A stretch of 64,000 nt of DNA from Actinernus sp. WN-2022 (taxonomy: Eukaryota > Cnidaria > Anthozoa > Actiniaria > Actinernidae), in NCBI GenBank assembly GCA_030867875.1, contig JAOWCC010001609.1:434001-498000 (forward strand), written 5' to 3'. Below are positions 38,430 through 64,000 of the stretch, piece by piece (position 1 is the first letter of the stretch; every line of letters starts with the position of its first letter). Below the pieces are notes generated by a model. The model was not told where the DNA came from. It worked only from the letters and a program-made list of their open reading frames with translations, and made no database searches. A program made the translations under genes and the position numbers.

Positions 38430-38485
38430 TTTCGTAAAGTTAAAATAAGATCCACGTTCGTTTCTTTCATAGGAAATGTCGATTT

Positions 38486-39106: not shown

Positions 39107-39125
39107 CGTATGTATATGTCTTAAC

Positions 39126-42615: not shown

Positions 42616-42640
42616 AACTACATATCATGGTATATTCAAC
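42616..42640. promoter_or_regulatory. Divergent promoter before the major capsid gene (copy 1)
   Basis: Spacer between the divergent ATGs with TATATTCAACATG at the capsid side and the reverse complement of a close relative (ATGTTCAATATGGG) at the other. The copy 2 spacer (60087-60111) has the same TATATTCAACATG. The same TTCAACATG word starts the orphan gene of copy 2, so it is a shared late-gene start motif. Confidence 0.55.
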
Positions 42641-43772
42641 ATGATATCGTCGAAGTTGATTCCCACACAAGCACGAAGAGAGCCTCTCTCACTCAAAGCT
42701 CAACGAACCGCTCTATATAGGAAAACTTTCACTCCATCATCTGCCAATCCAGGCGAGACGCTCTATGTGGAAGTTCCAACGATGGGAGAAGATATCGTAT
42801 TAGTTCCTGGTAGCTTAGCATTGTTGGGCGACATCGTATTGTCTGGTGGACATGCCAATAATCGAGTTGTTGCAAATGTTGGACGTTGCTTAGTTATACA
42901 TCGAGTTTGTAAGATGGGAGCTGAAATAGTAGAAGACATTGCTCGGTCAGATCTCTTACAGACATATTCCGATGTATATCTATCTACGCAAGAGAGAGAA
43001 TCGAGAATACAACAAGGTATCCAATCAGAGAACGCAAATAAGCTACGATCTAAGGCCGGTGATGCAAGTACTTCGAACGTCGGTGATAATGCGCTCCTAG
43101 TTGCATATGGTTCCAAATATAGAATTCCGTTAGACGTTGATATTCTGACACAACATGGAGTTCTATATTCACATGCGTTAGAAGACACCATTTCATTCGA
43201 GTTAACTCTAGCTCGCGCCATCGAGATAATCGTTGGATCGGATGCGACAAAGATAGGTACGTACAAGCTTAACAACATCCAGTTAGAATATGAAGCAAAG
43301 AAGAATGAAACACATATGAAAAAGGTACTGCTTTCCTATACAATCACGCAGTTCACTTTAAGATGGTACCTATTGCCAAGGCATCAGATACTTTAATATC
43401 TCAGAATATAAATGTTCCACGACGATCCTTTGCTGGGTTACTTCTACTATTCATATACTATTCTTTCCGGGAGGTATGTTACCACCAGATTTTTGGGAGG
43501 CCGCAAAAGGATGGTTTGGCACATCCGAGACTTCTATGACTCCTACCAAATTTTACGATAACAGATTTGCCATCCTAGTCGATTGTCGCACAGCAAAGGA
43601 TTCCTCTTCTCATGGCGATGGAATGGCACAAACTGGTGGTGGAAAAGATATCGATATTCGTATACATAGCCGAACTTTAAAAGGAAGTGGAAACGTAAAC
43701 ATGTATATCTACGTCCTTGCAGATGCTCAGCTCAAGATATTGAACAGATCTTTACATAGTATAACATACTGA
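42641..43772 (+). pseudogene. Broken major capsid-like gene, copy 1
   Basis: Aligns with the intact 411-codon gene at 60112-61347 (conserved NPGETLYVEVP, VLVPGSLALLGDIVLSGGHA). The frame is lost near 43310 after YEAKK, and about 95 bases are missing near 43455, inside the region that in copy 2 runs from LLLFID to the PSGML block. The 3' part (43476-43772) is open again. Not functional as a single protein. The remaining sequence shows that copy 1 once encoded the same capsid-type protein. Confidence 0.8.
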
Positions 43773-44395
43773 TGGATTCCCTCGTAGAACATATTCCATT
43801 CAACACACTTATAGTAGGTCCAACGAATTGTGGAAAGACTGCATTTCTCATAGAACAACTTCGTGGACCAATTCGTGGTAAGTTCGATTACATAGTATTA
43901 ATTTGTCCTACGTATGCCCACAACGAAACATATCATGGATTTGCCAATCGAGATCCACACTTTTATGTCGTATCTCCACCTCAGGATGCCATCAATACCG
44001 CATTGAATATCTGTGCCACATTTTGGAAAGGGACCAATACTCTATTGATTCTAGATGATTGTGCCGCCTCAAAAGATGTAAAACGAAGAACTGACAAGCT
44101 AGTAGATTTAGCATTCTCTGCCCGACATATAGGACTCTCTATTTGGGTGCTATCCCAACAGTTAACGAGTATATGCAAACCTTTCCGTGAGAACGTAGCT
44201 ATTGTAGTAGCATTTCATACGGCATCGGTTATAGATGGTAAAAGGATATTTGAAGATTATGGAGGCTCACAAGAATGTAATGAGTTACGAACAATACTTA
44301 GATCTCACAAGTTTGCTCGCATATGTTTTTGTTTGCGACATCCTTTTGCAGTAGTGTTAGAGCTACCCGCACCTATAACATATTATCATGGATGA
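43772..44395 (+). CDS. A32/FtsK-HerA-type packaging ATPase, copy 1
   Basis: 207 residues. Walker A is GPTNCGKT (residues 16-23) and Walker B is LLILDD (about 91-96). The segment LSQQLTSI (about 127-134) carries the glutamine sensor expected for this family. Role: ATP-driven loading of viral DNA into preformed capsids. Length fits the compact ATPases of Polinton-like viruses. Start codon overlaps the capsid gene stop (CTGATGG), and its stop overlaps the next start (ATGGATGA). Frame intact although the upstream capsid gene is broken. Confidence 0.8.
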   Translation: MDSLVEHIPFNTLIVGPTNCGKTAFLIEQLRGPIRGKFDYIVLICPTYAHNETYHGFANRDPHFYVVSPPQDAINTALNICATFWKGTNTLLILDDCAASKDVKRRTDKLVDLAFSARHIGLSIWVLSQQLTSICKPFRENVAIVVAFHTASVIDGKRIFEDYGGSQECNELRTILRSHKFARICFCLRHPFAVVLELPAPITYYHG

Positions 44396-44936
44396 TAAAG
44401 AAATACTCGGGCTACTTGGTGAGGATTTAACAGGCCCACCACCTAAAACAGAAGACGTTGCATCAGATAATCGTGAATCACTTTCCATTTTGGCTGCAAC
44501 TGGTACAACGAAGGAATACCTAGGAAAGAATTTCTCTCTAGGAGATATTGCTATACTTCCTGAAAAAGAAGTAGATAAATTGTATAGAAGGTATCAGGCC
44601 GTTCTTGGTAAACAAATAACAGAAAGCTTAGTCAATGGTGTGATGCGTCTAGCTACTCGCTTAGTTGCTTACCTAGTACCAATAGATTCTCAAGAAGCAT
44701 TGATCAAAGACCTACAAGAAGACCAACTAGTCCGTAACGAGATCAGTGCTACCACTGGTCTATTATCACTTAAAGCAGGTCGCTTTGTAGCACTAGCTAG
44801 TGTCTTGTTCCATGTATCTGGTCACATAGTTCTTCCTGGTACACCTATTGAACCTTCGCACATACCTACTACATCGAATCGGGATGGAGGAACAGACGGA
44901 TCAGATAACTGCGAATCCACCGACGACTGTGCCTGA
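44388..44936 (+). CDS. Conserved protein after the ATPase, copy 1
   Basis: 182 residues, overlapping the ATPase end by 8 bases. Mostly helical, with SILAATGTTKEYLGKNFSL, then YRRYQAVLGKQI, and a more hydrophobic second half (GLLSLKAGRFVALASVLFHV). Ends in an acidic, cysteine-containing tail. Homologous to 61963-62526 in copy 2. No family recognised. Confidence 0.6.
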   Translation: MDDKEILGLLGEDLTGPPPKTEDVASDNRESLSILAATGTTKEYLGKNFSLGDIAILPEKEVDKLYRRYQAVLGKQITESLVNGVMRLATRLVAYLVPIDSQEALIKDLQEDQLVRNEISATTGLLSLKAGRFVALASVLFHVSGHIVLPGTPIEPSHIPTTSNRDGGTDGSDNCESTDDCA

Positions 44937-45180
44937 CAAGAAAGTAAAAGATCCAAAGAAGGTCGCCGCTGGGAAAGCATTAGCACTTAGCAATAAACTT
45001 GCTAGAGAGGCTCAAAAGAGAGAGATGGCGCGTGAAAGTGAATTATCTAAAGAAATCGATGTAGAGGAAAGTTGGATCAAAAACATATCTACTAATACTA
45101 CACACAACCCAGGTAGTCAAAAATGGCGATACCTATTACCGTTAGAAACCTGGCGTACTTACCATACTCGGCTGTGCTGA
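44884..45180 (+). pseudogene. 3'-truncated small membrane protein, copy 1
   Basis: Aligns with the protein at 62474-62812 from MEEQTDQITANPPTT through KLAREAQKREMARES, then departs at about 45070. The rest of the frame reads into the dispersed repeat at 45097. So the transmembrane part is missing and the end of the ORF is chimeric by accident. Confidence 0.65.
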
Positions 45181-52540: not shown

Positions 52541-52910
52541 TTTGTGTGTATAACCCACTTTGACGATGTTGCGCAGGCAACTAGAACAATGCATATACGA
52601 TCTGAATTACAAGAGACTACCGGCGGGCCACATACTATTTGGCGGACAACATCTATTGTTGTTTGATGCGTGCGCAACATCGTCAAAGTGGGCTATTCTA
52701 TTTGGCTGCATTCTCTACCCCAGACCTTTCTCTTATTTCTTACTGCGCATGCTCGACGAAGTGATTTCGTCGAGCATGCGCAGTAAGAAATAAGAGAAGG
52801 GTCTGGGGTCGAGAAATGTTCTGAGCAATTTCGCCGGAAGTCGGACAAAGCCTTTTTGGAGGGTTGATTTATTGCATGGCCAGATGGATATAGCTCCCGA
52901 CGTGAGAGTA
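52540..52910. mobile_element. Composite MITE with palindrome (second copy)
   Basis: MITE with inverted ends CCCACTTTGACGATGTTGCG (52555-52695), then a near-perfect palindrome at about 52717-52817 centred on CGACGAAGTGATTTCGTCG, then GGAGGGTTGATTTATTGCAT. Same order as 8255-8640, and more intact here. Confidence 0.65.
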
Positions 52911-53046
52911 GTAGGGGCGGTAGTAGAATTATACCACTTTTTTGTTGCACAAGGGCGCCATAAAGCGAATTCAGAAATCCACTTTATGACGCCCTTGCAC
53001 AACAAAAAAAGTTGTATAATTCTACTACCGCCCCTACTACTAGGGG
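52903..53046. repeat. Palindromic hairpin, ~140 bp
   Basis: Arms AGTAGTAGGGGCGGTAGTAG..TTGCACAAGGGCG and their reverse complement (CGCCCTTGCACAA ... CTACTACCGCCCCTACTACT) meet around 52978. It has replaced the sequence seen at this place in the first composite copy, so it is a separate insertion. It lies directly against the left part of viral copy 2. Confidence 0.65.
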
Positions 53047-53057
53047 TACTAAGGGTC

Positions 53058-53135
53058 AGCCAAATTGTCACTAGACATTCTTACACATAAAAATCCAAAC
53101 TTGATAACCCTATTAGAGATATGATTAGCATATAG
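53058..53135. repeat. Left direct repeat flanking the F-box/ankyrin gene
   Basis: Matches 53877-53955 over about 78 bases (CCAAATTGTC, CATTCTTNCAC, ATCCAAACTTGA, TTAGAGATAT). The gene cassette between the repeats may have been gained, lost or amplified by recombination at these repeats. Confidence 0.6.
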
Positions 53136-53175
53136 TTATATCGACATCGATTGTCCCGTATCGATCTCTTCCACT

Positions 53176-53862
53176 ATGGATCATATATCGTACCTCCCGA
53201 TGGAAATCTTGACTAAGATCGTAGAGTATGCAGGCCCAGAATCATTCGCAAGCATCGCAAGGACATCGAAACACCTAAACGGTGCCGCATCTCTCGTGCG
53301 CTACAAAAACGTAGACCAAGAGTTCCGTAAACGAGTACTCACTTTCGGTCTTAGGTCTACTCGTAATGACAACGATCGAGACAATTTGGCTAGGACATTC
53401 GGTATTTCCGCAAACTACATCGATGATAGCTTTCCTCTTGTCTACGCCAGTGAATATGGTAATCTTAACGTTATTAAGTGGCTCATTAAGCACTTATGGT
53501 TCGATAAAATGGGTGGACACACCGATTACGTTCTATGCGCTGCCTGTAAGGATGGCTGTCTTGATATCGCTAAGTGGCTCACTAAGCACTTCCAGTTCAC
53601 CAAAGAGGATAAAGCCGTCGGGTTTGCTATACTAGATGCCTGTAGGAATGGCCATCTCAATACCGTTAAGTGGCTCATTCGACGCTTTCAGATAACCATA
53701 GAGTATGAATACGCCCATCATGCTCTACTATGCGCCAGTAGCAATGGTCATCTTAATACCGCTAAACGGATCGTTGAGTGGCTCATTAAGCGCTCCCAGC
53801 TCACCATAGTGGACGAAAACGCTCTACTAGATTACTACATAAATGCTTATGCCGCCACATAG
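53176..53862 (+). CDS. F-box-like / ankyrin-repeat protein
   Basis: 228 residues. The N-terminus LPMEILTKIVEYAGPESFAS with ARTSKHLN is F-box-like, and three to four ankyrin-type repeats follow (ASEYGNLNVIKWLIKH, ACKDGCLDIAKWLTKH, ACRNGHLNTVKWLIRR, ASSNGHLNTAKRIVEWL). This GHLN..KWL form is the style of giant-virus ankyrin proteins. Such F-box/ankyrin proteins usually present a bound host protein to an SCF ubiquitin ligase, so a role in changing the host cell is probable but inferred. Flanked by 78-bp direct repeats. No equivalent remains in copy 1. Confidence 0.65.
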   Translation: MDHISYLPMEILTKIVEYAGPESFASIARTSKHLNGAASLVRYKNVDQEFRKRVLTFGLRSTRNDNDRDNLARTFGISANYIDDSFPLVYASEYGNLNVIKWLIKHLWFDKMGGHTDYVLCAACKDGCLDIAKWLTKHFQFTKEDKAVGFAILDACRNGHLNTVKWLIRRFQITIEYEYAHHALLCASSNGHLNTAKRIVEWLIKRSQLTIVDENALLDYYINAYAAT

Positions 53863-53876
53863 GATCTCTCGCAACA

Positions 53877-53955
53877 TCCAAATTGTCCCTAGGCATTCTT
53901 GCACCTAAAGATCCAAACTTGAGCAACTGTTAGAGATATCATTAGTATACCGCAT
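53877..53955. repeat. Right direct repeat flanking the F-box/ankyrin gene
   Basis: Second copy of 53058-53135, beginning 15 bases after the F-box/ankyrin stop. It may include the 3' end signal of that gene and an upstream element of the next one. Confidence 0.6.
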
Positions 53956-53965
53956 ATCGCCACCT

Positions 53966-54161
53966 ATGGTATTAGTATACATTCTCTACTCCACGATATT
54001 AGCTTACGTTGTTATCTCCATCCACGGTACTAACATACATTCTCTACTTCACGATATTAACGTATGCTGTTATCTTAGTACGTATTAATACCACACAGAT
54101 TAGACAAGTGCGTATGATTGAAGAACCTCAACGTAGACGCCACAACCAAGATACCAATTAG
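53966..54161 (+). pseudogene. Rearranged small membrane ORF (copy 2)
   Basis: Homologous to 36809-36934, but the first 58 bases are present twice in tandem (from ATGGTATTAGTATAC and again from GGTACTAACATAC). Because 58 is not a multiple of three, the ATG at 53966 no longer leads into the conserved tail RQVRMIEEPQRRRHN. The second unit lacks an ATG at the expected place. It may be lost or may use another start. Confidence 0.5.
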
Positions 54162-54190
54162 ACATATAGTATATATAGGTATATAACAAG

Positions 54191-54610
54191 ATGATTGATA
54201 CAAGAACTTGCGATTGGTTGATGCGAGGAAAGACCACGAAATGTATAAGTAAGTGTTCAAAGACGTCAGAGTATTGCTCTCAACATAACTTCCAGATAGG
54301 AAAAGGATGTGCCATATTCGTTCCATGTTTGACGTGTGGTCGAGGCTGTCGTACTATTCACGAACTTTGTGCAAAATGTGGTGCACCTCAACGCCGTACC
54401 ATTCGCAATAAGAAGAACCTTGATAAGAAACGAGCTAACGAGTCGGCGAATATCACGTGTTCAAATGTAGTAGAATCGGAGAAAGATCTAAATGTAGTGG
54501 AATCGGAAAAAGATCAAAATGTGGTGGACATTAACGATCTCGATAATGCATTGGATGACCTCTCCATCGGTGAGAAAGATCTAAATGTGGTAGAATCGGA
54601 GGATAAGTAG
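54191..54610 (+). CDS. Cys-rich zinc protein (copy 2)
   Basis: 139 residues. Conserved cysteines include CDWLMRG..KC, YCSQHNF and the core CLTCGRGC with ELCAKCG. A basic stretch (RRTIRNKKNLDKKR) may bind nucleic acid. The tail has three VVESEKD/EDK repeats, compared with two in copy 1. Upstream TATATATAGGTATATAAC is shared with copy 1. An A/T hairpin follows 13 bases after the stop. Likely a transcription or DNA-binding accessory factor; specific function unknown. Confidence 0.7.
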   Translation: MIDTRTCDWLMRGKTTKCISKCSKTSEYCSQHNFQIGKGCAIFVPCLTCGRGCRTIHELCAKCGAPQRRTIRNKKNLDKKRANESANITCSNVVESEKDLNVVESEKDQNVVDINDLDNALDDLSIGEKDLNVVESEDK

Positions 54611-54622
54611 AAATCACGATAC

Positions 54623-54696
54623 GAAAAAAAAAAAAAAAAAAAATGATGAAGAGAAATTGTTATGCGACCTCTCTTCATTTTTTTTTTCTTTTTTTT
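54623..54696. terminator. A/T-rich hairpin after the zinc gene (copy 2)
   Basis: An A-run followed by ATGATGAAGAGA pairs with TCTCTTCAT followed by a T-run; the loop is AATTGTTATGCGACC. Stem sequence differs from copy 1 but position and form are conserved. The open frame beginning at 54643 starts inside this hairpin and is not the true start of the next gene. Confidence 0.55.
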
Positions 54697-54756
54697 AAAA
54701 AAAAAACAAACGAACGAACAATTAGACAATTGACAGGCATATGGTATACAACTAGT

Positions 54757-55773
54757 ATGGGTGATCTTATCAGATTACTTGGTCCAGAAATTTGTGCAAG
54801 CCTACATATCAAACCATTGTCGCATATCAAACCATTGTCGCATATTAACACCGGTGAAACATGTTCCGAATGTCTATGCCCGATGGAAATGCAAGGAACG
54901 GAATTCATATGTCCCACCTGTGGTCTTGTTTCCGAGACTGAATCATGTGAAGAAACAACTATCGATCTTACTACTAGGTTATGCATAGTAGGGTCGGATA
55001 GCTTTCGGTATCAACATGATCTAGACCGCGCAAAACCAAAGCAAAGCGATGGCACAGACCTGCGACGACAAATGCTCCTACGAGAACTACAAGTGTACAA
55101 CACTATTTACAAACAAAATTATGACCTATCGTTCCCTATGAACACGTTAGGAATCGTAGCCGACGCATTTATCCAAGTAAATAAAGTTTGTCTCAAGCGT
55201 AGTGATGCTAAGAGAAATATTTTAGCTGCTCTACTCTACCATGCATGCATACAATGTGGGTTCGTACGAACTAAAGATGAGGTTGCCCGCTTCATGCAAC
55301 TAAGCAACAAAAGAATCCATAGCGGAGAGGTCTTTATACGTTCTCTGTATGACGACGATAAGATCGATGTAGACTTGGATGCCGAGTGCATAGTTCCTCA
55401 CATTGCAACGACTTTCCTTAAACTCGATCCTCAAGGAGTACCTAGGGACGTTCAACGAATAGTCCATGAGGTTGTTACTACAGCGATAGAAAACAATATA
55501 GGCCCCAGTTCAATACTTAAGACGAAAGTCGTTGGAGCAAGTTACGAGGTGCTACGTCGCTTAGGATCGTCTATGTCTCTTAAGGATGTCGTTAAACGAT
55601 GTGACATATTTGGAAATGCGGTCAAGCGTTTTGTCAAGGAGTTGTCTTCTTACCATTCCCACTTCGAACCAATCTACGCTAGGCATGGGCTAACTAGCAG
55701 TAGGACTTGGCAAAGTGAAAGTGAGAACCATGTTCGTTCCTTTCATAGGAAACATCGATTCTTACCCCACTAA
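54757..55773 (+). CDS. TFIIB-like transcription factor (copy 2)
   Basis: 338 residues. Start chosen at 54757 (CTAGTATGGGTGAT), since the same context starts copy 1 at 37497. Zinc ribbon cysteines are near residues 36, 39, 52 and 55. Residues 19-30 contain an extra KPLSHI unit from an 18-base tandem duplication absent in copy 1. Cyclin-like repeats follow, with ADAFIQVNKVCLKRSDAKRN as the first core. Probably recruits an RNA polymerase to viral TATA-like promoters. The stop overlaps the end of the convergent hydrophobic gene by 12 bases. Confidence 0.7.
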   Translation: MGDLIRLLGPEICASLHIKPLSHIKPLSHINTGETCSECLCPMEMQGTEFICPTCGLVSETESCEETTIDLTTRLCIVGSDSFRYQHDLDRAKPKQSDGTDLRRQMLLRELQVYNTIYKQNYDLSFPMNTLGIVADAFIQVNKVCLKRSDAKRNILAALLYHACIQCGFVRTKDEVARFMQLSNKRIHSGEVFIRSLYDDDKIDVDLDAECIVPHIATTFLKLDPQGVPRDVQRIVHEVVTTAIENNIGPSSILKTKVVGASYEVLRRLGSSMSLKDVVKRCDIFGNAVKRFVKELSSYHSHFEPIYARHGLTSSRTWQSESENHVRSFHRKHRFLPH

Positions 55774-56382
55774 GCTGCCAAGTTTTTCTCGCATTTCCTT
55801 TTGCACTTCTTGTTTGAGTTCGGCTCGAACCCAATCCGTGCTTTTTTCACCTATGGAAGCCTTGCGACGAATTTCAGACCTCATGATCTCATACTTATTC
55901 GCTTCGTTCAGGATGAGACCGTATTCGGAGTCGGATATGTTTTCATCGCGTAAGGCCTTCGATACTAGATCTCGAATAGTATTGATTTTCGCCTTTGCCA
56001 ACATAGTTGTCCTTTCATGCTTAGAAACCTTCATTCCTAACTTCTTAGCTCCAATGGTAGTAGATGCTGAAATTAATCCACATAGCCCACCAATAACTCC
56101 AAGTGGTAGACCAATCACTATTCCAACCCCAGTCAACGCTGCGCCCAATCCAGATCCAGATAAGATCACAGATAGACCTCCAGTTACCACTGCGATGCCA
56201 TGAACTATTCCTTGAGAACGTGCATATTTCTTGCGCACACCTTCGTAGTGCCTTTCTTGAACTTCTATGTCCGAAAGCGTGTCTCGGATCGTTTGCAGTC
56301 TAAAGTTCTTTCCAGTGTCATTAGCAATCGGTGGATAGATACTTGGTGCTGAGGGAAACGGTTGAATCGAATCGCCTTCCAT
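55762..56382 (-). CDS. Conserved hydrophobic protein (copy 2)
   Basis: 206 residues, the same length as copy 1 and nearly identical in the hydrophobic core (GGLSVILSGSGLGAALTGVG, PLGVIGGLCGLISASTTIGA). The strict conservation of the glycine-rich part compared with the N-terminus suggests that the membrane-inserting segment is the functional part. It may be a virion-associated membrane-active protein. No named family. Confidence 0.65.
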   Translation of the reverse strand: MEGDSIQPFPSAPSIYPPIANDTGKNFRLQTIRDTLSDIEVQERHYEGVRKKYARSQGIVHGIAVVTGGLSVILSGSGLGAALTGVGIVIGLPLGVIGGLCGLISASTTIGAKKLGMKVSKHERTTMLAKAKINTIRDLVSKALRDENISDSEYGLILNEANKYEIMRSEIRRKASIGEKSTDWVRAELKQEVQKEMREKLGSLVG

Positions 56383-56401
56383 TGTACGTTATACATATAA
56401 C

Positions 56402-57067
56402 TTACTCAAGCTTCAACACGTATCGTATAGGCTGATTGTTGAAGTCTATGAGGTTGCCTTCCTTATCGAGAACTGTGAGGCGAATGTAGCTCTGCATCGT
56501 TCCCAGGGCTCGAATGGGTAGGAGAGTTGGCGGAAAGTAAGTCATTGCTTTAAAACTGTGGTCTGCCATATGAAAAATATGTAGTACTTTAGATGGCTTC
56601 CCCTCAAGAAGTGAGAAGGTGGAATCTACCACATCGCAGTAGATATATGCATAATGAATATCTTGTGGCACCAGGGTGTACTTTCCCACATCGATAGTCA
56701 CGTAGTCTGTCACGTCTTTATTTACTTTGATACCAAACAAATCGCAGATATTCTTAGTGAACTGGATTGGTTTTTTGACCTCAATAATCCAATATTTCCT
56801 AAATGAATGGTCTACGAATTTCAAGAAACCGGCCTTAACTGCGGGATCGAAGTAGGTTATCAAGTTTTCTATACTATAATGCCCCACCTTAATTTCGTAT
56901 GGAAACATCACACTATTGTTATCCCACTTAAAACTCCCCTTCTCAGCTAGGTTCCACCAATTATGACTAAGAGTGACCTCGACTAGCGAAATATTATTGA
57001 TAAGAATTGGATCGTCGAAGTAGACCGTATGGTCGGATGATGTGGTGGTGACATTAAGGATCGTCAT
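56402..57067 (-). CDS. Minor capsid (penton)-like protein (copy 2)
   Basis: 221 residues, mostly predicted beta, homologous to 39126-39788. Conserved blocks: ISLVEVT near residue 25, EVKKPIQFTKNIC in the middle, YCDVVDSTFS, and the end LIDFNNQPIRYVLKLE. Size and position fit the vertex (penton) protein with a single jelly roll. The stop lies 19 bases from the start of the hydrophobic gene on the same strand, so both may share a transcript. Confidence 0.5.
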   Translation of the reverse strand: MTILNVTTTSSDHTVYFDDPILINNISLVEVTLSHNWWNLAEKGSFKWDNNSVMFPYEIKVGHYSIENLITYFDPAVKAGFLKFVDHSFRKYWIIEVKKPIQFTKNICDLFGIKVNKDVTDYVTIDVGKYTLVPQDIHYAYIYCDVVDSTFSLLEGKPSKVLHIFHMADHSFKAMTYFPPTLLPIRALGTMQSYIRLTVLDKEGNLIDFNNQPIRYVLKLE

Positions 57068-57108
57068 TATATGTTGAAGGTATAACTATATATACGTATA
57101 GCTTCAAC
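57068..57108. promoter_or_regulatory. Palindromic bidirectional promoter (copy 2)
   Basis: Arms ATGTTGAAGGTATA and TATAGCTTCAACAT around a centre ACTATATATACG. Compared with copy 1, two bases per arm differ and each is matched by the complementary base on the other arm. The one mismatch (G opposite G in GAAGG/AGCTT) is the same in both copies. Confidence 0.65.
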
Positions 57109-58953
57109 ATGACAGACGCATGGCGGCAGTTCAAGTACCTATTTCCTAATGCCGTACTTAGTTGGTTCGAATCTACTTCTGATAATGTTAATTTCATCGA
57201 TCGGGGAATGTCTCATCGCGTGTTCACGGAGGAAGGTCCTCCTACTAAGACGGGAGGTGGTAAATTGATGGGGTGGCTTGGTCGCACTGGTAAGGCTCTC
57301 GATATAGCACTTGGTGGTAAGTCAGTTTACGAGAGCGTACTATTCGCACGGGAACATGAAGGTCTTTCCAAACGCGATTGGATAGAAGAAAACGATAAGA
57401 TCGCAACGTTGAATGCAGATCTATTAGCGAAGTTCGAGAAACGATACCCACATGCGGATCTTCACAAGTTCTATGCCTCTACGGAAGTGAACGGTCCAGG
57501 CAAATATTCGACGAGTATTTGGTTTCGAGATGGAGATTCTAGCTATATCGTTTACGGCAATGATGTCTCAAAGTTACCTACTACGATTCAAAAACGCATC
57601 GATAATGCGTTGTGGGATGTGCATAAAGGTTTCCCATCTACGTTGACCCTAGATAATAGCGCGAAATATCCTATTACAGCAGTTCCTTCTACTGGACCGG
57701 CACAATATATTGATCTCACTAATCTATGGATATATGTCACCCCAACGAAGAAGTTCAAAGCTGGCGTTCCTAACATATTCAAGGAGACCGTCGTAAAGCA
57801 TACGACAGCAAATGAGTCCTACCATTGGTTACATGGTCCGGATTTCAAATATTGGCCTCAACAATTGAATTTCGCAACGTGGTGTGCGACTTCTGGATGT
57901 GGAGTGTCATTGTTTGATCCTATTTTCAAAACGTATCCACCAGTCGTTCAGGGGTTCCTACGATTCCATGTTTATTTCACTATACGAAGAATTCTACGTG
58001 AACTTGGTGGTACTAATGGAGTTCCTTTACCTGGTGACTCTGCTTTCAAGCAAATGGATAACCTCTATAACAAATCAGCTCTTGAGAAATTGTGCATCGA
58101 GTTTGGTTTATCTCGAACACCAGATTTCCGATGGCACGGAGGTAGGAATAATGGACTAGGAGATATATTCCTTTTGTACCCGGGTCCGACAGGATACGTA
58201 AACGTCCATGGAGTCCGAAGCTATGACAAAGGTGCAACCACATGGCCTCAGAAATATAATTTATTTGCAGACCAAGGAGGTAAGGAGGATCAGGGCGATC
58301 TTGTAGCCTTCATTAGGAACGATGAACATGAAGGAAAGCAATACAATTGGTTTACGCCACCAATCGGAAAGGGTTTGACAGATGCTGGATTGGGTAGGTT
58401 GAATAGATCTGTCGAGGCTTTTGGACATTGCATGCTTGGTGCTCAAGCCGACTTGAACGAATCCATCATAGATAGCCATAACGTCAAAGAAAAGTTTAAG
58501 AGCTTGGTTGAAGGCGCTATTCTCGTAAACGACTTAAAGTTAAGTTACGATAACTATCTTCTTGCTATAAAGACGACGCATAAGAGGCTCGATCTAGCAA
58601 TAGCTATAGGTGTGCGATTATTGCCAAGCAATCTAGTGTACTATCTTGGTAAGAAAGATGGCTATAGGAATCCAATCCCGAAAGCTACGAAAGATATGGT
58701 GCTAGGCGCTAACGACATCAATGCAGAAGTTGAAGGACACCCACCTCTTCCTATGGAAGGATCACCAGATAAGAAATTAATACCACCTCTCGAGACGCAC
58801 AAGAAACGAGTTACTGTACAGAAGGCTGTCGATAAGAAATCGGTGCCGCCTCTCGAGACGCACAAGAAACGAGAGGCTATCCCACAACATGAGATTAATC
58901 TCGCAGTGACATCCATTGTCGCAGCTGGAATTGCATGGACGTTGTTTCGTTAA
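57109..58953 (+). CDS. Conserved 614-residue orphan protein
   Basis: The largest gene of the element, intact here. Visible parts: an N-terminal region WRQFKYLFPNAVLSWFEST, a glycine-rich stretch TKTGGGKLMGWLGRTGKALD, the most conserved core KYWPQQLNFATWCATSGCGV followed by RFHVYFTIRRILRELGG, then GKGLTDAGLGRLNRSVEAFG, and a C-terminal hydrophobic segment TSIVAAGIAWTLF. The proline-rich segment before it holds a repeat (PPLETHKKR, twice), probably a linker. No enzyme motif recognised. A large virion protein, such as a spike, fibre base or second capsid component, is plausible because of the shared late promoter with the penton-like gene. Confidence 0.65.
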   Translation: MTDAWRQFKYLFPNAVLSWFESTSDNVNFIDRGMSHRVFTEEGPPTKTGGGKLMGWLGRTGKALDIALGGKSVYESVLFAREHEGLSKRDWIEENDKIATLNADLLAKFEKRYPHADLHKFYASTEVNGPGKYSTSIWFRDGDSSYIVYGNDVSKLPTTIQKRIDNALWDVHKGFPSTLTLDNSAKYPITAVPSTGPAQYIDLTNLWIYVTPTKKFKAGVPNIFKETVVKHTTANESYHWLHGPDFKYWPQQLNFATWCATSGCGVSLFDPIFKTYPPVVQGFLRFHVYFTIRRILRELGGTNGVPLPGDSAFKQMDNLYNKSALEKLCIEFGLSRTPDFRWHGGRNNGLGDIFLLYPGPTGYVNVHGVRSYDKGATTWPQKYNLFADQGGKEDQGDLVAFIRNDEHEGKQYNWFTPPIGKGLTDAGLGRLNRSVEAFGHCMLGAQADLNESIIDSHNVKEKFKSLVEGAILVNDLKLSYDNYLLAIKTTHKRLDLAIAIGVRLLPSNLVYYLGKKDGYRNPIPKATKDMVLGANDINAEVEGHPPLPMEGSPDKKLIPPLETHKKRVTVQKAVDKKSVPPLETHKKREAIPQHEINLAVTSIVAAGIAWTLFR

Positions 58954-60086
58954 CGTCGTTTGTATTGCTCTATAGTGATCACCACTATTGCTACGATGAA
59001 TAACCAAACGTTCTGTGCTAGTACTCCCAGAGCTTTACCAGCCATAGTAAATATGAAACTCACAATAGATCCAATCATTCCAGGTAGGATCTGTCCAAGT
59101 TCCTTTCCCATTTCTTTTAGCAACCCCCCAGTCGTTTTCAAGCCCTTCTTTACTGCATCTGCTGCTTTATCGATACCAGCCTTTACTGGTTTCGGTACGG
59201 ATCTCGACAACAGGGAAACTATCGTACTAACGATAGCGCCAACGGAAGTTACCACTGCAAGAACAGTCATTCCATGCTTTCTAAAAATGTATTTGATCCT
59301 TTCACGTAGAGATGTACGTTCTAGTATGGCTTCTTCTTGACGTTCGAGTAATTCTATTTCGTTCTGGATGCGTACTTTCTCTTCCTTAGCCGCTTCCTTC
59401 TGGTCCTCAGTTGACGTTGAGCTTAGAAGTATGCTATCTTCTACTTTGAGATGTTCGGCGGCCTTTTCTTGACCTTGGATGACTTGTTCTGCTCTTTCTG
59501 CATCCGTAGGACCTAGGGCAAATTTGAGATCTTTACCCATACTTTGATATCTTTCGCCCTTCACTGTGGTCAAAGGTATGGGCTTCTCTTTACTTCCAAG
59601 TACGTGAAGATAGATCCTACCCAGTTCCTTATTGGCATCCCATATTCCAGTTATCTCAAGGACTCCTCCACGAATCCCTACATCCGCATAGTGTTTCCAT
59701 ACAGTATCGAATAGCATTTGTTTCGTTTCATCCGATGTGCCTGCTTTGAAGATTACGTGGCGATCGCTAAATTTCGGATTTTCGATTCTATCCTCATCCA
59801 TCAATTGCTCTCTAGAAAGGTTCGAGACTTCCGGCCCGGCGAGTTCGTCTATGTAATCATCGTCTACGGTAAACGAGGTTTCCCGATTCTTTGATCGAGC
59901 ACCTTCCTTGGCGAAGTCGCGTCTAGTTTTCAAGTTGAATGATTCTCTCGGATCCACATTCGTAGAGTCTGGAAACGCCAATTTCCGTGCTTCTTCATTG
60001 ACAGTATCATCGTCATCTTTTCCTCTTTCAGCTTCATCAGTTCTTTCCTCATACCTCCCATCAATCTTAAAGTCCATGTTAGACAT
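58950..60086 (-). CDS. Membrane / coiled-coil protein (copy 2)
   Basis: 378 residues from the ATG at 60086, which aligns with the start in copy 1. Charged N-terminus, a middle region with little similarity to copy 1, and then a conserved helix LERQEEAILERTSLRERIKY and two or three hydrophobic segments (MTVLAVVTSVGAIVSTIVSL, GMIGSIVSFIFTMAGKALGV, WLFIVAIVVITIE). The rapid change of the N-terminal two thirds against the fixed membrane part is what would be expected if the exposed part faces host factors. Its stop overlaps that of the orphan gene. Confidence 0.65.
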   Translation of the reverse strand: MSNMDFKIDGRYEERTDEAERGKDDDDTVNEEARKLAFPDSTNVDPRESFNLKTRRDFAKEGARSKNRETSFTVDDDYIDELAGPEVSNLSREQLMDEDRIENPKFSDRHVIFKAGTSDETKQMLFDTVWKHYADVGIRGGVLEITGIWDANKELGRIYLHVLGSKEKPIPLTTVKGERYQSMGKDLKFALGPTDAERAEQVIQGQEKAAEHLKVEDSILLSSTSTEDQKEAAKEEKVRIQNEIELLERQEEAILERTSLRERIKYIFRKHGMTVLAVVTSVGAIVSTIVSLLSRSVPKPVKAGIDKAADAVKKGLKTTGGLLKEMGKELGQILPGMIGSIVSFIFTMAGKALGVLAQNVWLFIVAIVVITIEQYKRR

Positions 60087-60111
60087 AATTATATATATAG
60101 TTATATTCAAC
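60087..60111. promoter_or_regulatory. Divergent promoter before the major capsid gene (copy 2)
   Basis: A 25-base spacer with TATATATAGTTATATTCAAC leading directly into the capsid ATG; on the other strand ATTATGTCTAACATG leads to the membrane gene. The same TATATTCAACATG word is at the capsid gene of copy 1. Confidence 0.55.
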
Positions 60112-61347
60112 ATGATCTCATTAAAGTTGGATCCCATGCAAGCACGAAGAGAGCCTCATGCACTCAAGGCTCCGCGAGACTTGTATAGGAAAACTTTCAC
60201 TCGATCATCTGCCAATCCAGGTGAGACTCTATACGTAGAAGTCCCAAAGCTAGAAGAAGGCGTAGTACTAGTACCTGGTAGCTTAGCGCTATTGGGCGAC
60301 ATCGTACTATCTGGTGGACATGCAAATAACAGAGTCGTTTCGAACGTTGGACGCTGCTTGGTCATGCGTAGAATCTGTAGGATGGGAGCTGAAACAGTAG
60401 AAGACCTTGTCAGGCCAGACCTCCTACAAACGTACTCCGATGTATACCTATCTACGCAGGAGAGAGAGTCTAGAGTACAACAAGGCATTCAATCAGAGAA
60501 CGTAAACAAGCTACGATCGAAAGCTGGTGACGCAAGTACTTCGTCTGCTGCAGACAACGCGCTCCTAGCTGCATGTGGTTCCAAGTATAGGATTCCATTA
60601 GATGTTGACATTCTGACACAACATGGAGTTCTATATCCATATGCCTTAGAAAGTACAATTACATTCGAGTTGACTCTAGCGCCTGCCAACGAGGTCGTAA
60701 TTGGATCGGATACGACGAAGATAGGTACGTACCAACTTACCAACATCCAACTAGAATACGAAGCAATCAGGGACGGAACGCTGGCTAGTAGTGCACTTCA
60801 CAAGTACGAAATAGGTGCTGCACTCCTATACAACTACGCTGTTCACTTCAAGACAGTAGATATCGCTAAAACATCCGATACTTTGATATCTCAAAACGTT
60901 AATGTTCCACGACGATCCTTTGCCGGACTACTTCTACTATTCATAGATCCACCTACCATTGGCACGCGAGATAGTGACGCATTCTCGAATCCCGATATTT
61001 CGAAGGTAGAAGTAGATGTCAACGGGATTCCCAACAGACTCTTTCCAAGCGGCATGCTTCCCCTAGATTTCTGGGAGGCTGCAAGAGGCTGGTTTGGTAC
61101 ACCCAATACTTCCATGACTCCAAAGAAGTTCTTTGAAAATAGATTCGCTATCCTAATCGATTGTCGCACAGCAAAAGATTCCACCGTTCATGGTGATGGC
61201 TTGGCACAAACCGGCAGTGGAAAGGACATCGACATTCGCATACATAGAACTGCAAAGGGAAGTGGAAATGTGAAAATGCACATCTATGTCCTTGCGGATG
61301 CTCAGGTCACGATATTGAACAGATCTCTGCAGAGTATATTATACTGA
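60112..61347 (+). CDS. Major capsid-like protein (double jelly-roll candidate)
   Basis: 411 residues; the start at 60112 is set by alignment with copy 1 and by the promoter word. Conserved blocks: NPGETLYVEVPKLEEGVVLV, SLALLGDIVLSGGHANNRVV, YRIPLDVDILTQHGVLYPY, TYQLTNIQLEYEAI, NVPRRSFAGLLLLFIDPP, and KGSGNVKMHIYVLADAQ at the end. Many alternating beta-type segments and its place immediately before the packaging ATPase point to the capsomer protein of Polinton-like viruses; the length is near the short end for double jelly-roll proteins. A structure prediction would decide. Confidence 0.6.
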   Translation: MISLKLDPMQARREPHALKAPRDLYRKTFTRSSANPGETLYVEVPKLEEGVVLVPGSLALLGDIVLSGGHANNRVVSNVGRCLVMRRICRMGAETVEDLVRPDLLQTYSDVYLSTQERESRVQQGIQSENVNKLRSKAGDASTSSAADNALLAACGSKYRIPLDVDILTQHGVLYPYALESTITFELTLAPANEVVIGSDTTKIGTYQLTNIQLEYEAIRDGTLASSALHKYEIGAALLYNYAVHFKTVDIAKTSDTLISQNVNVPRRSFAGLLLLFIDPPTIGTRDSDAFSNPDISKVEVDVNGIPNRLFPSGMLPLDFWEAARGWFGTPNTSMTPKKFFENRFAILIDCRTAKDSTVHGDGLAQTGSGKDIDIRIHRTAKGSGNVKMHIYVLADAQVTILNRSLQSILY

Positions 61348-61970
61348 TGGATTCTCTCGTAGAGCACGTGCCATTCAACGCACTCATAGTCGGTCCAACG
61401 AATTGTGGGAAGACTGCGTTTCTCATAGAACAACTTCGTGGATCATTTCGTGGTAAGTTCGATTACATAGTACTGATTTGTCCTACGTATGCCCACAACA
61501 AAACTTATCGTGGATTTGCAAATCGAGATCCTCGTTTCTTCGTCATGTCACCACCTCAGGATGCCATCGATGCTAGTTTGAGTATTTGCGCAACATTTTG
61601 GTCAGGTACCAATACTCTATTGATTCTCGATGATTGCGCCGCATCGAAGGACGTCAAGAAACGAACTGAAAAGCTAGTGGACTTAGCCTTTTCTGCACGA
61701 CATATAGGGCTTTCCGTTTGGGTGCTGTCCCAACAACTAACGAGCATATGTAAACCCTTCCGTGAGAACGTAGCTATCGTAGTAGCATTCCATACAGCAT
61801 CGGCCGTAGATGGCAAAAGGATATTTGAGGATTATGGAGGCTCGCAAGAATGCAAAGAGTTACGAACGATACTTGGATCCCATAAGTTCGCTCGCATGTG
61901 CTTCTGTCTACGCCATCCTTTCGAGGTAGTGTTAGAGCTCCCAGCACCTACAACATATTATCATGGATGA
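61347..61970 (+). CDS. A32/FtsK-HerA-type packaging ATPase (copy 2)
   Basis: 207 residues with Walker A GPTNCGKT (16-23), Walker B LLILDD (91-96), an arginine in SARH (118) and VLSQQLTSI with the glutamine sensor (about 126-134). Powers DNA entry into the capsid. TGATG overlap with the capsid gene upstream, 8-base overlap with the gene downstream. Highly conserved with copy 1, including residues outside the motifs, so the ATPase is the slowest-changing gene of the pair by eye. Confidence 0.82.
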   Translation: MDSLVEHVPFNALIVGPTNCGKTAFLIEQLRGSFRGKFDYIVLICPTYAHNKTYRGFANRDPRFFVMSPPQDAIDASLSICATFWSGTNTLLILDDCAASKDVKKRTEKLVDLAFSARHIGLSVWVLSQQLTSICKPFRENVAIVVAFHTASAVDGKRIFEDYGGSQECKELRTILGSHKFARMCFCLRHPFEVVLELPAPTTYYHG

Positions 61971-62526
61971 ATACCTGAATGAACTGATTGATGAGTGCGC
62001 TATTGTTTGCCCTCCAGTCGTGTTGGAACATCCAACCAAATTGGAGGGTGTCGAAGATTGTCGGGAAGCACTTGCAATCTTAGCTGCAATGGGTACGACA
62101 AAAGAGTATCTAGGACAGAATTTCTCAATAGTAGATATATCTAAGCTATCTGAGAAGGACGTAAAACGTTTGCATAGTAGGTACCAGGCCGTAGTAGCAA
62201 AGCAAATAACGGGATGTCTAGTAAATGGAGCACTACGCCTAGCTACCCGCGCAGTCGCATACGTAGTTCCAATAGATGACAAACAAGAACTGCTTAAGGA
62301 CCTACGAGAAGACCATCTAGTTCGCAACGAGATATCTGCTGTGGCCGGTCTATTATCACTCAAAGCAGGTCGATTAGTGGCTCTAGCTAGTGCCTTGTTC
62401 CACGTAGTTGATCACATAGTCGTTCCTACAACACCTGTTGAACCTCTACAGGTAACTACTATACCGAATCAAGATGGAAGAAGCGGACCAGATAACTGCG
62501 AATCCTCCGACGACTGCACCAACTAA
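61963..62526 (+). CDS. Conserved protein after the ATPase (copy 2)
   Basis: 187 residues. Helical N-terminal half (ILAAMGTTKEYLGQNFSI, HSRYQAVVAKQITG), basic-hydrophobic second half (GLLSLKAGRLVALASALFHV) and an acidic tail with CESSDDC. It is coded mostly by overlap-packed DNA: its start lies inside the ATPase gene and its last 53 bases overlap the next gene. Function unknown; no match recognised. Confidence 0.6.
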   Translation: MDEYLNELIDECAIVCPPVVLEHPTKLEGVEDCREALAILAAMGTTKEYLGQNFSIVDISKLSEKDVKRLHSRYQAVVAKQITGCLVNGALRLATRAVAYVVPIDDKQELLKDLREDHLVRNEISAVAGLLSLKAGRLVALASALFHVVDHIVVPTTPVEPLQVTTIPNQDGRSGPDNCESSDDCTN

Positions 62527-62812
62527 GGTAAAAAATCCAAAGCGCGTCGCAGCTGGAAAGGCACTAGCGTTAAGCAACAAGCTTGCTAGAGAAGCTCAGG
62601 AGAGAGAGTTGACGCGTGAAAGCGAACCACGCAACGTAGAGAAAGGTCGGTTCGAAAATCTGACCATCCTCGCAGTCATCGGTACTGGCGCTACATTGGT
62701 CGGCACGTACTTTGCGTACAAGAAGTATGTAGATGGCAACACGCGAGCTGCCGACGTTAGCACGACACAACCTGCAGCTCCGGCAAAGCCAACGGTACTA
62801 GACATGGAGTAA
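62474..62812 (+). CDS. Small single-span membrane protein
   Basis: 112 residues: a proline/threonine N-terminus, a basic helix (KRVAAGKALALSNKLAREAQ), one hydrophobic span (LTILAVIGTGATLVGTYFAY) and an alanine/proline-rich end. Overlaps the previous gene by 53 bases in another frame. Copy 1 has only its first two thirds. Confidence 0.6.
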   Translation: MEEADQITANPPTTAPTKVKNPKRVAAGKALALSNKLAREAQERELTRESEPRNVEKGRFENLTILAVIGTGATLVGTYFAYKKYVDGNTRAADVSTTQPAAPAKPTVLDME

Positions 62813-62849
62813 CACTTAAAGACTCGAGATCATACTTATATATGTCGAG

Positions 62850-63059
62850 ATGGATAAGGAATTGATGAAGACGGCAACCGATGCAGCTATAATTGTTGGA
62901 CTCGCTTCTGGTATTGGGTGGATCGTAAAAAAGACTACCAAGGAATCTATGCTTAGCGATCCTTCTTCTTCCCTAGTGAATTACGCAAAGTGGACTGCCG
63001 TGATACTTGGTAGCTTATACGCGAAACAATATCTTGAGAAACAAAAGATCATACCGTAA
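62850..63059 (+). CDS. Small two-span membrane protein
   Basis: 69 residues with two hydrophobic segments (DAAIIVGLASGIGWIV and YAKWTAVILGSLYA) joined by KKTTKESMLSDPSSS. Preceded by ACTTATATATGTCGAG, the only larger gap in this part of the gene chain, so a separate promoter is possible. Its TAA stop overlaps the next ATG (TAATGG). Confidence 0.6.
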   Translation: MDKELMKTATDAAIIVGLASGIGWIVKKTTKESMLSDPSSSLVNYAKWTAVILGSLYAKQYLEKQKIIP

Positions 63060-63484
63060 TGGCAGCAGCAATTGGAACGACCGTTTTCGGGGCTATCTTG
63101 AATGCAACGGCATTTACTGGTGGTGGTATACTAGCTAGAATGATTGGAAAGGGTGATGTAGATACGGAACGAGAGAGACACGATAGGGCCGTCGAAAAAC
63201 TAGAACGCGAAATGAAAGCGTATAGAATCGAACGTCAAAGACGATACGACTATGCACAAGAGCAGGAAGGTCTTGAACGCAACGCACGCAACGATCAAAG
63301 AGATACCAACGAAGCCTTAGTGCGATCCGATAAGTTACGTAAGGCGCTTAAACGTCTCAAAGAGCTGAAAAAAACCCGCTTATCTGACTACTACAAACTC
63401 TCAAACAATCAGAAAACTGGCGAGTTGCTCTACGTTGGTGGTGGAATGCTAGGCGTTGGATACGCTATTAGTAAATGGTTATAG
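63059..63484 (+). CDS. Coiled-coil protein with hydrophobic ends
   Basis: 141 residues: a hydrophobic N-terminus (FGAILNATAFTGGGILARM), a long highly charged helix rich in R and E (about residues 35-110, coiled-coil-like) and a hydrophobic C-terminus (GGGMLGVGYAISKWL). Coupled to the preceding gene through TAATG. May be a scaffold or membrane-linked protein; function unknown. Confidence 0.6.
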   Translation: MAAAIGTTVFGAILNATAFTGGGILARMIGKGDVDTERERHDRAVEKLEREMKAYRIERQRRYDYAQEQEGLERNARNDQRDTNEALVRSDKLRKALKRLKELKKTRLSDYYKLSNNQKTGELLYVGGGMLGVGYAISKWL

Positions 63485-63783
63485 AAACGTACTAGGTCGT
63501 ACTAGATCGTACTAGGTCGTACTAGGTAACGTACTAGATCGTACTAGGTCATACTAGGTAACGTACTAGGTCGTACTAGGTAACGTACTAGGTCGTACTA
63601 GATAACGTACTAGGAACGTATTAGGTTCTACTAGGAACGTACTAGGTACTACTACTAAGCTACTACTAAGCTACTACTAAGCTACTACTAAGCTACTACT
63701 AAGCTACTACTAAGCTACTACTAAGTTACTAAGTTACTACTAGCTACTACTAAGCTACTACTAAGCTACTACTAGGTTACTAC
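63485..63783. repeat. Tandem repeats, CGTACTAGGT then AAGCTACTACT units
   Basis: The first part (63485-63645) is built from CGTACTAGGT/CGTACTAGAT units of 10-12 bases separated by TAA; the second part (63650-63783) is about eleven units of AAGCTACTACT. The word TACTA is common to both, so the second block could have grown from the first. Located between the last small gene and the integrase-like gene. No frame runs through. Confidence 0.8.
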
Positions 63784-63784
63784 T

Positions 63785-63869
63785 AAAAAAAAAAAAAGGA
63801 AAAAAAAAAAAGGAAAAAAGAAAGGAATGAGGCCTGGTTCTTATTCTTTTCTTTTTTCTTTTTTTTTCA
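63785..63869. terminator. A/T-rich hairpin before the integrase-like gene
   Basis: Left arm AAAAAAGAAAGGAATGAG and right arm CTTATTCTTTTCTTTTTT pair imperfectly around GCCTGGTT. Third instance of this structure in the element, again just before a start codon. Confidence 0.5.
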
Positions 63870-63885
63870 TCTGTTGAAGGTTAGA

Positions 63886-64000
63886 ATGTATAGATGTATG
63901 ATGGATTCTAAACTTGCGAATATCTTCTATGGTCCTATGGGCTATTGGAAAGGTCACTCTGCAATTGGCAAGCTATCGGTAGCAGCGAAAGCATCAGAAG
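63886..64000 (+). CDS. Start of an rve-type integrase-like gene, cut by the window edge
   Basis: Open from ATGs at 63886, 63898 or 63901 to the last base. The visible peptide DSKLANIFYGPMGYWKGHSA with AIGKLSVAAKAS has the pattern Y-x(n)-GYW-G-x-AI-L-A-A, which I recall from the N-terminal region of rve-type integrases of Polinton-like elements in cnidarian genomes. The catalytic DDE part lies outside the window, so this is a tentative call. Confidence 0.45.
   Translation, partial: MYRCMMDSKLANIFYGPMGYWKGHSAIGKLSVAAKASE

What the first reader, a model, noticed from the sequence alone, without database searches (positions are those of the whole stretch)
53050..64000. Intact, possibly undescribed Polinton-like virus integrated in an animal genome
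Seen: thirteen packed genes with open frames, including a clear packaging ATPase, two beta-rich capsid-type proteins, a TFIIB-like factor and an integrase-like start. Known: Polinton-like viruses and adintoviruses combine a double jelly-roll capsid, penton, A32-type ATPase and rve integrase. Inferred: this is a member or relative, but with a TFIIB-like gene, a 614-residue orphan and no visible protease or PolB, so it may form its own group.
Basis: partly seen in the sequence, partly recalled or inferred. Interest (0 to 1): 0.92.

Follow-up and report, generated by a model that had tools for sequence, protein, structure and literature searches.

The report
Many-copy Polinton virus in animal genome
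A roughly 16,000-base virus-like jumping element of the known Polinton kind sits in this genome (probably an animal's) in many near-identical copies, and it carries an unusual gene resembling a transcription factor that may help switch on its own genes.

Summary
The element starts with a terminal inverted repeat (TIR) at 52907 and runs 4.85 kb past the window: 15.95 kb in all, TIRs 97% identical, ends AGTAGT...ACTACT. Beyond the edge lie a true rve integrase and a type-B DNA polymerase, so 'no PolB' is an edge effect. PolB is split into two frames here, so this copy is not intact. The capsid candidate is modelled as a double jelly-roll, closest to iridovirus/PBCV-1 capsids. The 614-aa 'orphan' has at least 466 relatives but no known fold. 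A broken second copy lies at 36.8-45.1 kb. The genome holds many copies: the 150 ATPase hits scored are all open and at least 97% identical; 54 of 72 scored PolB hits have frames of 1200 aa or more without stops. This is a Polinton/Maverick-type endogenous virus. Departures: 5-bp target duplications at three sites, a TFIIB-like gene in all 15 copies examined (stops in 8), TATA before 10 of 12 tested starts, F-box/ankyrin cargo, no protease found, one hypervariable gene. New variant of a known kind.

The parts
52907..53174 (+). Left terminal inverted repeat; its outer 135 bp (52907-53041) is itself a palindrome; outer end AGTAGT, preceded by the 5-bp duplication GTGAG (52902-52906)
   Evidence: 97.4% identical over 269 alignment columns to the inverted right end at L016:5053-4788; palindrome; junctions
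53176..53862 (+). F-box/ankyrin-repeat protein, 228 aa (cargo; role as a host ubiquitin-ligase adaptor is a guess)
   Evidence: Pfam Ank_2 3.1e-14; F-box-like 1.9e-4, below cut-off; found in 12 of 15 other left parts examined
54191..54610 (+). Cys-rich protein, 139 aa
   Evidence: matched, wholly or in part, in 15 of 15 other left parts
54757..55773 (+). TFIIB-like factor (zinc ribbon CxxC...CxxC, then a cyclin-like stretch), 338 aa; the upstream start at 54643 in the ORF list is not shared with copy A
   Evidence: Pfam TFIIB 0.0048 and 0.01 in copy A, both under cut-off; PDB TFIIB chains only 0.28-0.66; alignment; matched in 15 of 15 other left parts, 8 of them with one to three stops in the aligned stretch; no relatives found
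55762..56382 (-). 206-aa protein with two hydrophobic segments, possibly membrane-inserted
   Evidence: dN/dS 0.19
56402..57067 (-). Penton candidate (221 aa); inferred only from size, look of the sequence and position
   Evidence: pair alignment; no Pfam hit above cut-off; not modelled
57109..58953 (+). 614-aa conserved protein of unknown fold with a C-terminal helix (593-613 in the model)
   Evidence: 466 relatives; model pLDDT 72.6, pTM 0.64; no PDB match at E<=0.001
58950..60086 (-). 378-aa protein (395 aa from the upstream ATG at 60137) with three hydrophobic segments in its C-terminal third
   Evidence: dN/dS of its C-terminal part 0.38
60112..61347 (+). Major capsid protein, double jelly-roll, 411 aa
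   Evidence: AlphaFold2 pLDDT 85.2, pTM 0.85; Foldseek: SGIV capsid 1e-15, PBCV-1 9e-15; Pfam Capsid_N touches 29 of 64 family members, best 0.0015, but not this member itself
61347..61970 (+). A32-type genome packaging ATPase, 207 aa
   Evidence: Pfam Pox_A32 4.5e-11; PHROG terminase 8.5e-9; dN/dS 0.08; 150 of 150 scored genome hits open and 97-100% identical
61963..62526 (+). 187-aa protein, the most variable of the six genes compared between copies
   Evidence: nt identity 0.695-0.774 in 9 of 14 other copies whose ATPase is 0.986-0.992 identical
62474..62812 (+). 112-aa protein with one hydrophobic segment
62850..63059 (+). 69-aa small protein
   Evidence: 93.8-100% identical in 14 other copies
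63059..63484 (+). 141-aa protein, charged, probably helical (my reading)
63482..63827 (+). Tandem repeats between the virion-gene block and the integrase
63886..64000 (+). Start of the rve integrase (continues to L016:1138; 350 aa in all)
   Evidence: Pfam rve 1.8e-10 over the whole gene
36811..45090 (+). Second, decayed copy (alignable blocks 75-90% identical): frame breaks in the 614-aa and MCP genes, ends inside the 112-aa gene, no integrase

Best explanation
An endogenous Polinton/Maverick-type DNA virus, 15.95 kb, inserted by its own rve integrase (shown: TIRs, 5-bp target duplications, integrase gene). It presumably replicates with its PolB (protein priming is inferred from the family), packages DNA with the A32 ATPase into a double jelly-roll capsid that may have an internal membrane (hydrophobic proteins shown by a crude scan, membrane inferred), and transcribes its genes from TATA-like motifs just before the start codons, possibly with its own TFIIB-like factor (motif and gene shown, function inferred). 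The lineage has spread to many loci of this genome, and many copies remain near-identical with open frames, so the spread is recent (inferred). Whether by reinfection of the germ line or by transposition inside the cell is not resolved; the strong divergence of the 187-aa gene between copies whose neighbouring genes are near-identical suggests recombining, virus-like lineages. The window copy itself is broken in PolB.
For: TIR 97.4% over 269 columns; ends AGTAGT...ACTACT and 5-bp duplications GTGAG, CATTT, AACGA; rve and DNA_pol_B_2 above Pfam cut-offs; double jelly-roll MCP model; Pox_A32 ATPase; purifying selection between the two window copies; ATPase 150 of 150 scored hits open and at least 97% identical; PolB 54 of 72 scored hits with an open frame of 1200 aa or more and no stop in the match (my count); TFIIB-like gene matched in 15 of 15 other left parts; TATA within 30 nt before 10 of 12 tested starts against 44 of 406 other ATGs, a number reached in 1 of 10,000 base shuffles (mean 4.0).
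Against: No protease found by Pfam in the frames examined. Target duplications are 5 bp, not the 6 bp reported for vertebrate Mavericks. Penton not tested by structure. No relative confirmed in IMG/VR viral contigs with five queries. The TFIIB reading rests on sub-threshold profile scores, and 8 of 15 other copies have stops in the aligned TFIIB stretch. The TATA motif, and the starts used for TFIIB and the 395-aa gene, were chosen after looking; the F-box and integrase starts, which lack TATA in the 30 nt before them (sequences), were left out of the 12. Six of the ten copies whose ends were fetched had an end that could not be placed. The hydropathy scan also flags the MCP and the 187-aa protein, so it is a weak test.
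Confidence: 0.92

Rival explanations
1. A genuinely new virus class without PolB and protease.
For: No PolB in the window frames scanned; no protease by Pfam; TFIIB-like protein without relatives found.
Against: A DNA_pol_B_2 gene lies just beyond the edge and is open over 1200 aa or more in 54 of 72 scored copies; Polinton end motif, TIR and integrase.
Confidence: 0.03
2. A capsid-bearing transposon that no longer makes virions and spreads only inside the genome; capsid genes persist passively.
For: Many copies at scattered loci; no relative in IMG/VR.
Against: Capsid and ATPase genes show strong purifying selection between the two window copies (dN/dS 0.08-0.17); MCP is one open frame in 14 of 15 and ATPase in 15 of 15 young copies, window copy included; 18 of the 120 listed 614-aa relatives lie on contigs of 13-18 kb, about one element long (counted by eye).
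Confidence: 0.2
3. A satellite (virophage-like) that depends on a giant virus; TFIIB and TATA motifs mimic that virus's late transcription.
For: MCP closest to Nucleocytoviricota capsids among solved structures; A32-type ATPase; TATA-type motifs just before starts.
Against: Own PolB and TFIIB-like gene; the capsid model is further from mavirus (1e-10) and Sputnik (4e-9) than from iridovirus (1e-15). No helper virus was looked for.
Confidence: 0.12
4. The TFIIB-like gene is not a transcription factor but a zinc-ribbon protein with another role.
For: Pfam TFIIB 0.0048 and 0.01, under the cut-off; best PDB TFIIB chain 0.28, behind an unrelated zinc protein at 0.071; stops in 8 of 15 other copies.
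Against: Zinc ribbon followed by a TFIIB-repeat match in the order found in TFIIB, in both window copies; TATA motifs before genes.
Confidence: 0.3

Closest known systems
Polintons / Mavericks (Krupovic 2014, PMC4028283, parts 1-2 of 4 read; vertebrate Mavericks, PMC8097293, passages read)
   Same: TIRs with (AGT)2//(ACT)2 ends, rve integrase, type-B polymerase, packaging ATPase, double jelly-roll MCP, size within 15-20 kb, intronless genes
   Different: 5-bp rather than 6-bp target duplications at the three sites placed; no protease found; TFIIB-like and F-box/ankyrin genes; palindromic outer TIR (whether that is unusual was not checked)
Cnidarian Polintons (Hydra, Nematostella; PMC4028283, PMC10120064)
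   Same: Same kind of element; the only listed MCP relative with a species name is from the coral Oculina patagonica; cnidarian MCPs are reported to lie outside the main Maverick cluster
Adintoviruses and meldviruses (PMC11071296, passages read)
   Same: PolB plus rve integrase plus double jelly-roll capsid; Meld23486 pairs PolB and integrase with poxvirus-like virion genes
   Different: No chromodomain found on the integrase by Pfam; MCP not shown to be recognisable by BLASTp from adintovirus hexons; no direct comparison with Meld23486
Nucleocytoviricota (iridovirus, PBCV-1, poxvirus)
   Same: Capsid fold, A32-type ATPase, a TFIIB-like gene (that such viruses carry one is recalled)
   Different: 16 kb, integrase, TIRs, Polinton-type ends

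Membership tests
Polinton/Maverick | Terminal inverted repeats | tested here: met
   97.4% over 269 columns
Polinton/Maverick | End motif (AGT)2//(ACT)2 | tested here: met
   AGTAGT...ACTACT in the window copy; one other copy (L024/L025) has a single AGT at its left end; motif as stated in PMC8097293
Maverick (vertebrate definition) | 6-bp target site duplication | tested here: not met
   5 bp at 3 of 3 distinct sites where both ends were placed, of ten copies fetched
Polinton/Maverick | rve integrase | tested here: met
   Pfam rve 1.8e-10
Polinton/Maverick | Type-B DNA polymerase | tested here: met
   DNA_pol_B_2 1.3e-10; split in this copy, open in 54 of 72 scored copies; protein priming not tested
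Polinton/Maverick | Double jelly-roll MCP | tested here: met
   (a predicted model)
Polinton/Maverick | Packaging ATPase | tested here: met
Polinton/Maverick | Penton with single jelly-roll | tested here: inconclusive
   no model made; no profile hit above cut-off
Polinton/Maverick | Adenovirus-type protease (found in 74% of Polintons per PMC4028283, so not required) | tested here: not met
   no Pfam protease match in the 16 frames of this copy that were scanned; a divergent one could be missed
Adintovirus | Integrase with C-terminal chromodomain | tested here: not met
   at E<=1 Pfam shows only rve and a weak DUF6140 match; a divergent domain could be missed
Adintovirus | Hexon recognisable by BLASTp from adintovirus hexons | not tested
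   no adintovirus reference sequence was used here
Adintovirus | PolB with N-terminal OTU-like domain | tested here: inconclusive
   N-terminal PolB piece shows only weak zinc-finger matches in Pfam; an OTU-like stretch is my reading by eye
Virophage | Virophage-type MCP | tested here: inconclusive
   Foldseek ranks iridovirus and PBCV-1 above mavirus and Sputnik, which is a ranking and not a membership test

The most novel reading that the evidence does not exclude
A lineage of animal Polinton viruses that is active now or was very recently: it encodes its own TFIIB-like initiation factor matched to a TATA motif before its genes, exchanges a hypervariable gene between lineages, and has filled a 1.4-Gb genome with near-identical open copies, so particle formation by an animal Polinton could be looked for directly in this species.
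Probability: 0.35. Interest if true: 0.8.

Novelty: new variant of a known kind. Interest (0 to 1): 0.58.

Why it matters
Polintons are considered ancestors of most eukaryotic DNA viruses (abstract of PMC7805220 in the listing), yet their particles had not been observed when the vertebrate survey was written (abstract of PMC8097293 in the listing). A genome with many near-identical, open copies gives a place to look. A TFIIB-like gene in a Polinton, if its function holds, would tie these small viruses to the transcription style of large nucleocytoplasmic viruses.

Tried and rejected
Rejected: 'no PolB' (found beyond the edge); '614-aa orphan'; 'intact copy'; integrase judged from its start alone (Pfam showed nothing relevant; settled by the full gene). 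Led nowhere: IMG/VR scans with ATPase, MCP, 614-aa, TFIIB and integrase-start queries; genome-contig scan with the MCP; phage collection (one weak hit); PDB sequence searches with ATPase and MCP; Foldseek of the 614-aa model. Not done for lack of service: whole-genome counts of TIRs and of TFIIB genes; BFVD search of the MCP (not completed). The host species was not identified. One search's nucleotide identities for minus-strand loci were wrong (not reoriented) and are replaced; its protein-level rows stand. Several TATA patterns and distances were tried: TATA within 30 nt 10 of 12 against 44 of 406; within 45 nt 11 of 12 against 67 of 406; a stricter pattern 9 of 12 against 12 of 406 (30 nt) and 21 of 406 (45 nt).
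Full report
What is there. Thirteen open frames from 53176 to 63484, on both strands and without introns, are as described. The ATPase matches Pfam Pox_A32 at 4.5e-11. The 411-aa protein at 60112-61347, modelled with 63 relatives, gave pLDDT 85.2 and pTM 0.85 and Foldseek matches to the Singapore grouper iridovirus capsid protein (1e-15, TM 0.67/0.61), PBCV-1 (9e-15), mavirus (1e-10), vaccinia D13 (3e-9), Sputnik (4e-9) and PRD1 P3 (4e-9). It is a double jelly-roll model, nearest among solved structures to Nucleocytoviricota capsids. In its family 29 of 64 members touch Pfam Capsid_N (best 0.0015), but the window protein itself does not, and no PDB sequence match exists. The penton candidate remains an inference.

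Beyond the edge. The window is G000:C658:434001-498000 of a 1.39-Gb assembly in 1772 contigs. The right flank (L016) holds the rest of a 350-aa integrase (Pfam rve 1.8e-10) and, on the opposite strand, two PolB frames of 614 and 556 aa (the first length equals that of the window's 614-aa protein by coincidence). The 614-aa frame matches DNA_pol_B_2 at 1.3e-10; the 556-aa frame shows only weak zinc-finger matches. The left 268 bases of the element recur inverted at L016:5053-4788, 97.4% identical. The element therefore spans C658:486907-502853, 15,947 bp. PolB is split in this copy. Among the 72 PolB matches scored (of 5767 loose candidates), 54 have an open frame of at least 1200 aa without stops in the match (my count); the other 18 are shorter or carry stops, the window copy among them.

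Ends. Ends of ten copies were fetched. Both ends could be placed in four; two of these have the same flanks, so they are one insertion seen twice on contig C658. The three distinct sites carry GTGAG, CATTT and AACGA on both sides: 5-bp duplications (for CATTT I read the junction by eye, since that copy's left end is one AGT shorter). Vertebrate Mavericks are reported with (AG)3//(CT)3 or (AGT)2//(ACT)2 ends and 6-bp duplications (PMC8097293, passages read). The end motif agrees, the duplication length does not.

Copy number and age. The 150 ATPase matches scored, of 4585 loose candidates, are all open and 97-100% identical to the window protein. These are capped lists of the best matches, so they say that many young copies exist, not what fraction is young nor how many there are. 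Over 3.6 kb, 15 copies (the window's included) differ by 0.1 to 11% (105 pairs, median 7.4%, gaps ignored). MCP is one open frame in 14 of 15 and ATPase in 15 of 15. In nine of the 14 other copies the 187-aa gene is only 69.5-77.4% identical in DNA while the ATPase beside it is 98.6-99.2%; the 112-aa gene is 82.6-94.1% in the same nine. That looks like gene exchange or diversifying change.

Second copy. At 36811-45090 lies a decayed copy, 75-90% identical in its alignable blocks. Between the two, dS is 0.31-0.96 and dN/dS is 0.08 (ATPase), 0.12-0.17 (MCP), 0.10-0.27 (614-aa), 0.19 (206-aa), 0.31 (187-aa), 0.34 (TFIIB-like), 0.38 (395-aa), 0.48 (penton candidate) and 0.65 with an interval reaching 1.10 (Cys-rich). 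Their lineages diverged under selection, which favours separate insertions of functioning elements over a duplication in the host. dS is lower at the left end (0.31-0.53) than elsewhere (0.63-0.96); I cannot explain this.

Transcription. TATA occurs within 30 nt before 10 of 12 starts against 44 of 406 other ATGs in the element; shuffling the bases of the 12 stretches gives a mean of 4.0, and reached 10 in 1 of 10,000. The second copy shows 7 of 8 against 59 of 331. The motif was chosen after seeing the sequences; the TFIIB and 395-aa starts were moved to downstream ATGs; the F-box and integrase starts, which lack TATA (sequences), were left out, so over 14 starts it would be 10; and divergent gene pairs share one region. 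The p-values are therefore optimistic. The TFIIB-like sequence is matched in 15 of 15 other left parts, but only 7 have no stop in the aligned stretch, one has three, and one lacks a frame over 250 aa with the zinc-ribbon pattern. In the four divergent copies checked the first stop falls at residue 313, near the end. The F-box/ankyrin gene is matched in 12 of 15 without stops. Divergent copies give dN/dS 0.53-0.56 for TFIIB (codons after the stop included) and 0.39-0.69 for F-box/ankyrin, weaker selection than on capsid genes. No relative of the TFIIB-like protein was found at E<=0.01; that search needs shared 5-residue words.

Relatives. MCP relatives number 824 at E<=0.001 among 8000 candidates scored; the 120 listed are 43-50% identical, and the only one with a species name is from Oculina patagonica. 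In a tree of 121 MCPs (midpoint root) the window protein and P0001 form the sister branch of the other 119. The tree of 121 614-aa proteins does not show the same: the window protein pairs with P0159 (support 0.94) within a larger cluster, P0136 next to it at support 0.25. P0001 (best MCP relative) and P0136 (16th by E-value for the 614-aa protein) both come from a contig of 6242 bases, probably the same one. Of the 120 listed 614-aa relatives, 18 lie on contigs of 13-18 kb, against 2 of the 120 listed MCP relatives (counted by eye). This hints at free element-size genomes but proves nothing.

Literature. Bellas 2023 (PMC10120064, passages) states that cnidarian MCPs were the only metazoan ones outside the main Maverick-Polinton cluster. 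Krupovic 2014 (PMC4028283, parts 1 and 2 of 4) defines Polinton genes and finds the protease in 74%. Buck 2024 (PMC11071296, passages) describes an element with PolB, integrase and poxvirus-like virion genes. The word TFIIB does not occur in the held main texts of four papers. A search for Polinton with cnidaria and TFIIB gave 0 papers. A search for any two of TFIIB, virophage and Polinton gave 150, of which 15 were listed, six holding the word TFIIB; none of the 15 titles is about a Polinton-borne TFIIB, but I did not read those papers. A search on Polinton, F-box and ankyrin listed 6 papers, not read. Novelty of the TFIIB-like gene is therefore provisional.

Verdict. A Polinton/Maverick-type endogenous virus in the broad sense, with several tested departures. 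What it works like is well supported; whether it makes particles is not shown.

Noticed in passing
36811-45090: Second, decayed copy of the same element type, ending inside the 112-aa gene.
   Followed up: yes
61963-62526 and L001-L015: The 187-aa gene is far more divergent between copies than its neighbours, a mosaic pattern.
   Followed up: partly
C658:934964 (L002, L020, L021): A second copy on the same contig has the same outer flanks as the window copy, so contig C658 holds a duplicated stretch or two haplotypes; a copy on C1380 (L003, L040) shares the short PolB frame.
   Followed up: partly
54191-56382 versus the rest: Synonymous divergence between the two window copies is lower at the left end (0.31-0.53) than elsewhere (0.63-0.96); unexplained.
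   Followed up: no
52711-52815: Separate palindromic repeat just left of the element, with a related stretch at 8363-8625; looks like a small DNA transposon.
   Followed up: no
48412-49237 and 50625-51466: Inverted pair of repeats, 94% identical over 848 columns.
   Followed up: no
26552-29845 and 13405-15786: Reverse transcriptase-like frames of non-LTR retrotransposons (my reading of the translations).
   Followed up: no
33660-34802: Long C2H2 zinc-finger array in one open frame (my reading).
   Followed up: no
L017:4018-5409: Transposase-like frames (pogo/Tigger-like, my reading) to the right of the element.
   Followed up: no
53057-53132 and 53875-53949: Direct repeats, 83% identical, on either side of the F-box/ankyrin gene; related pieces also lie near the right end, as if that gene were a cassette.
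   Followed up: partly
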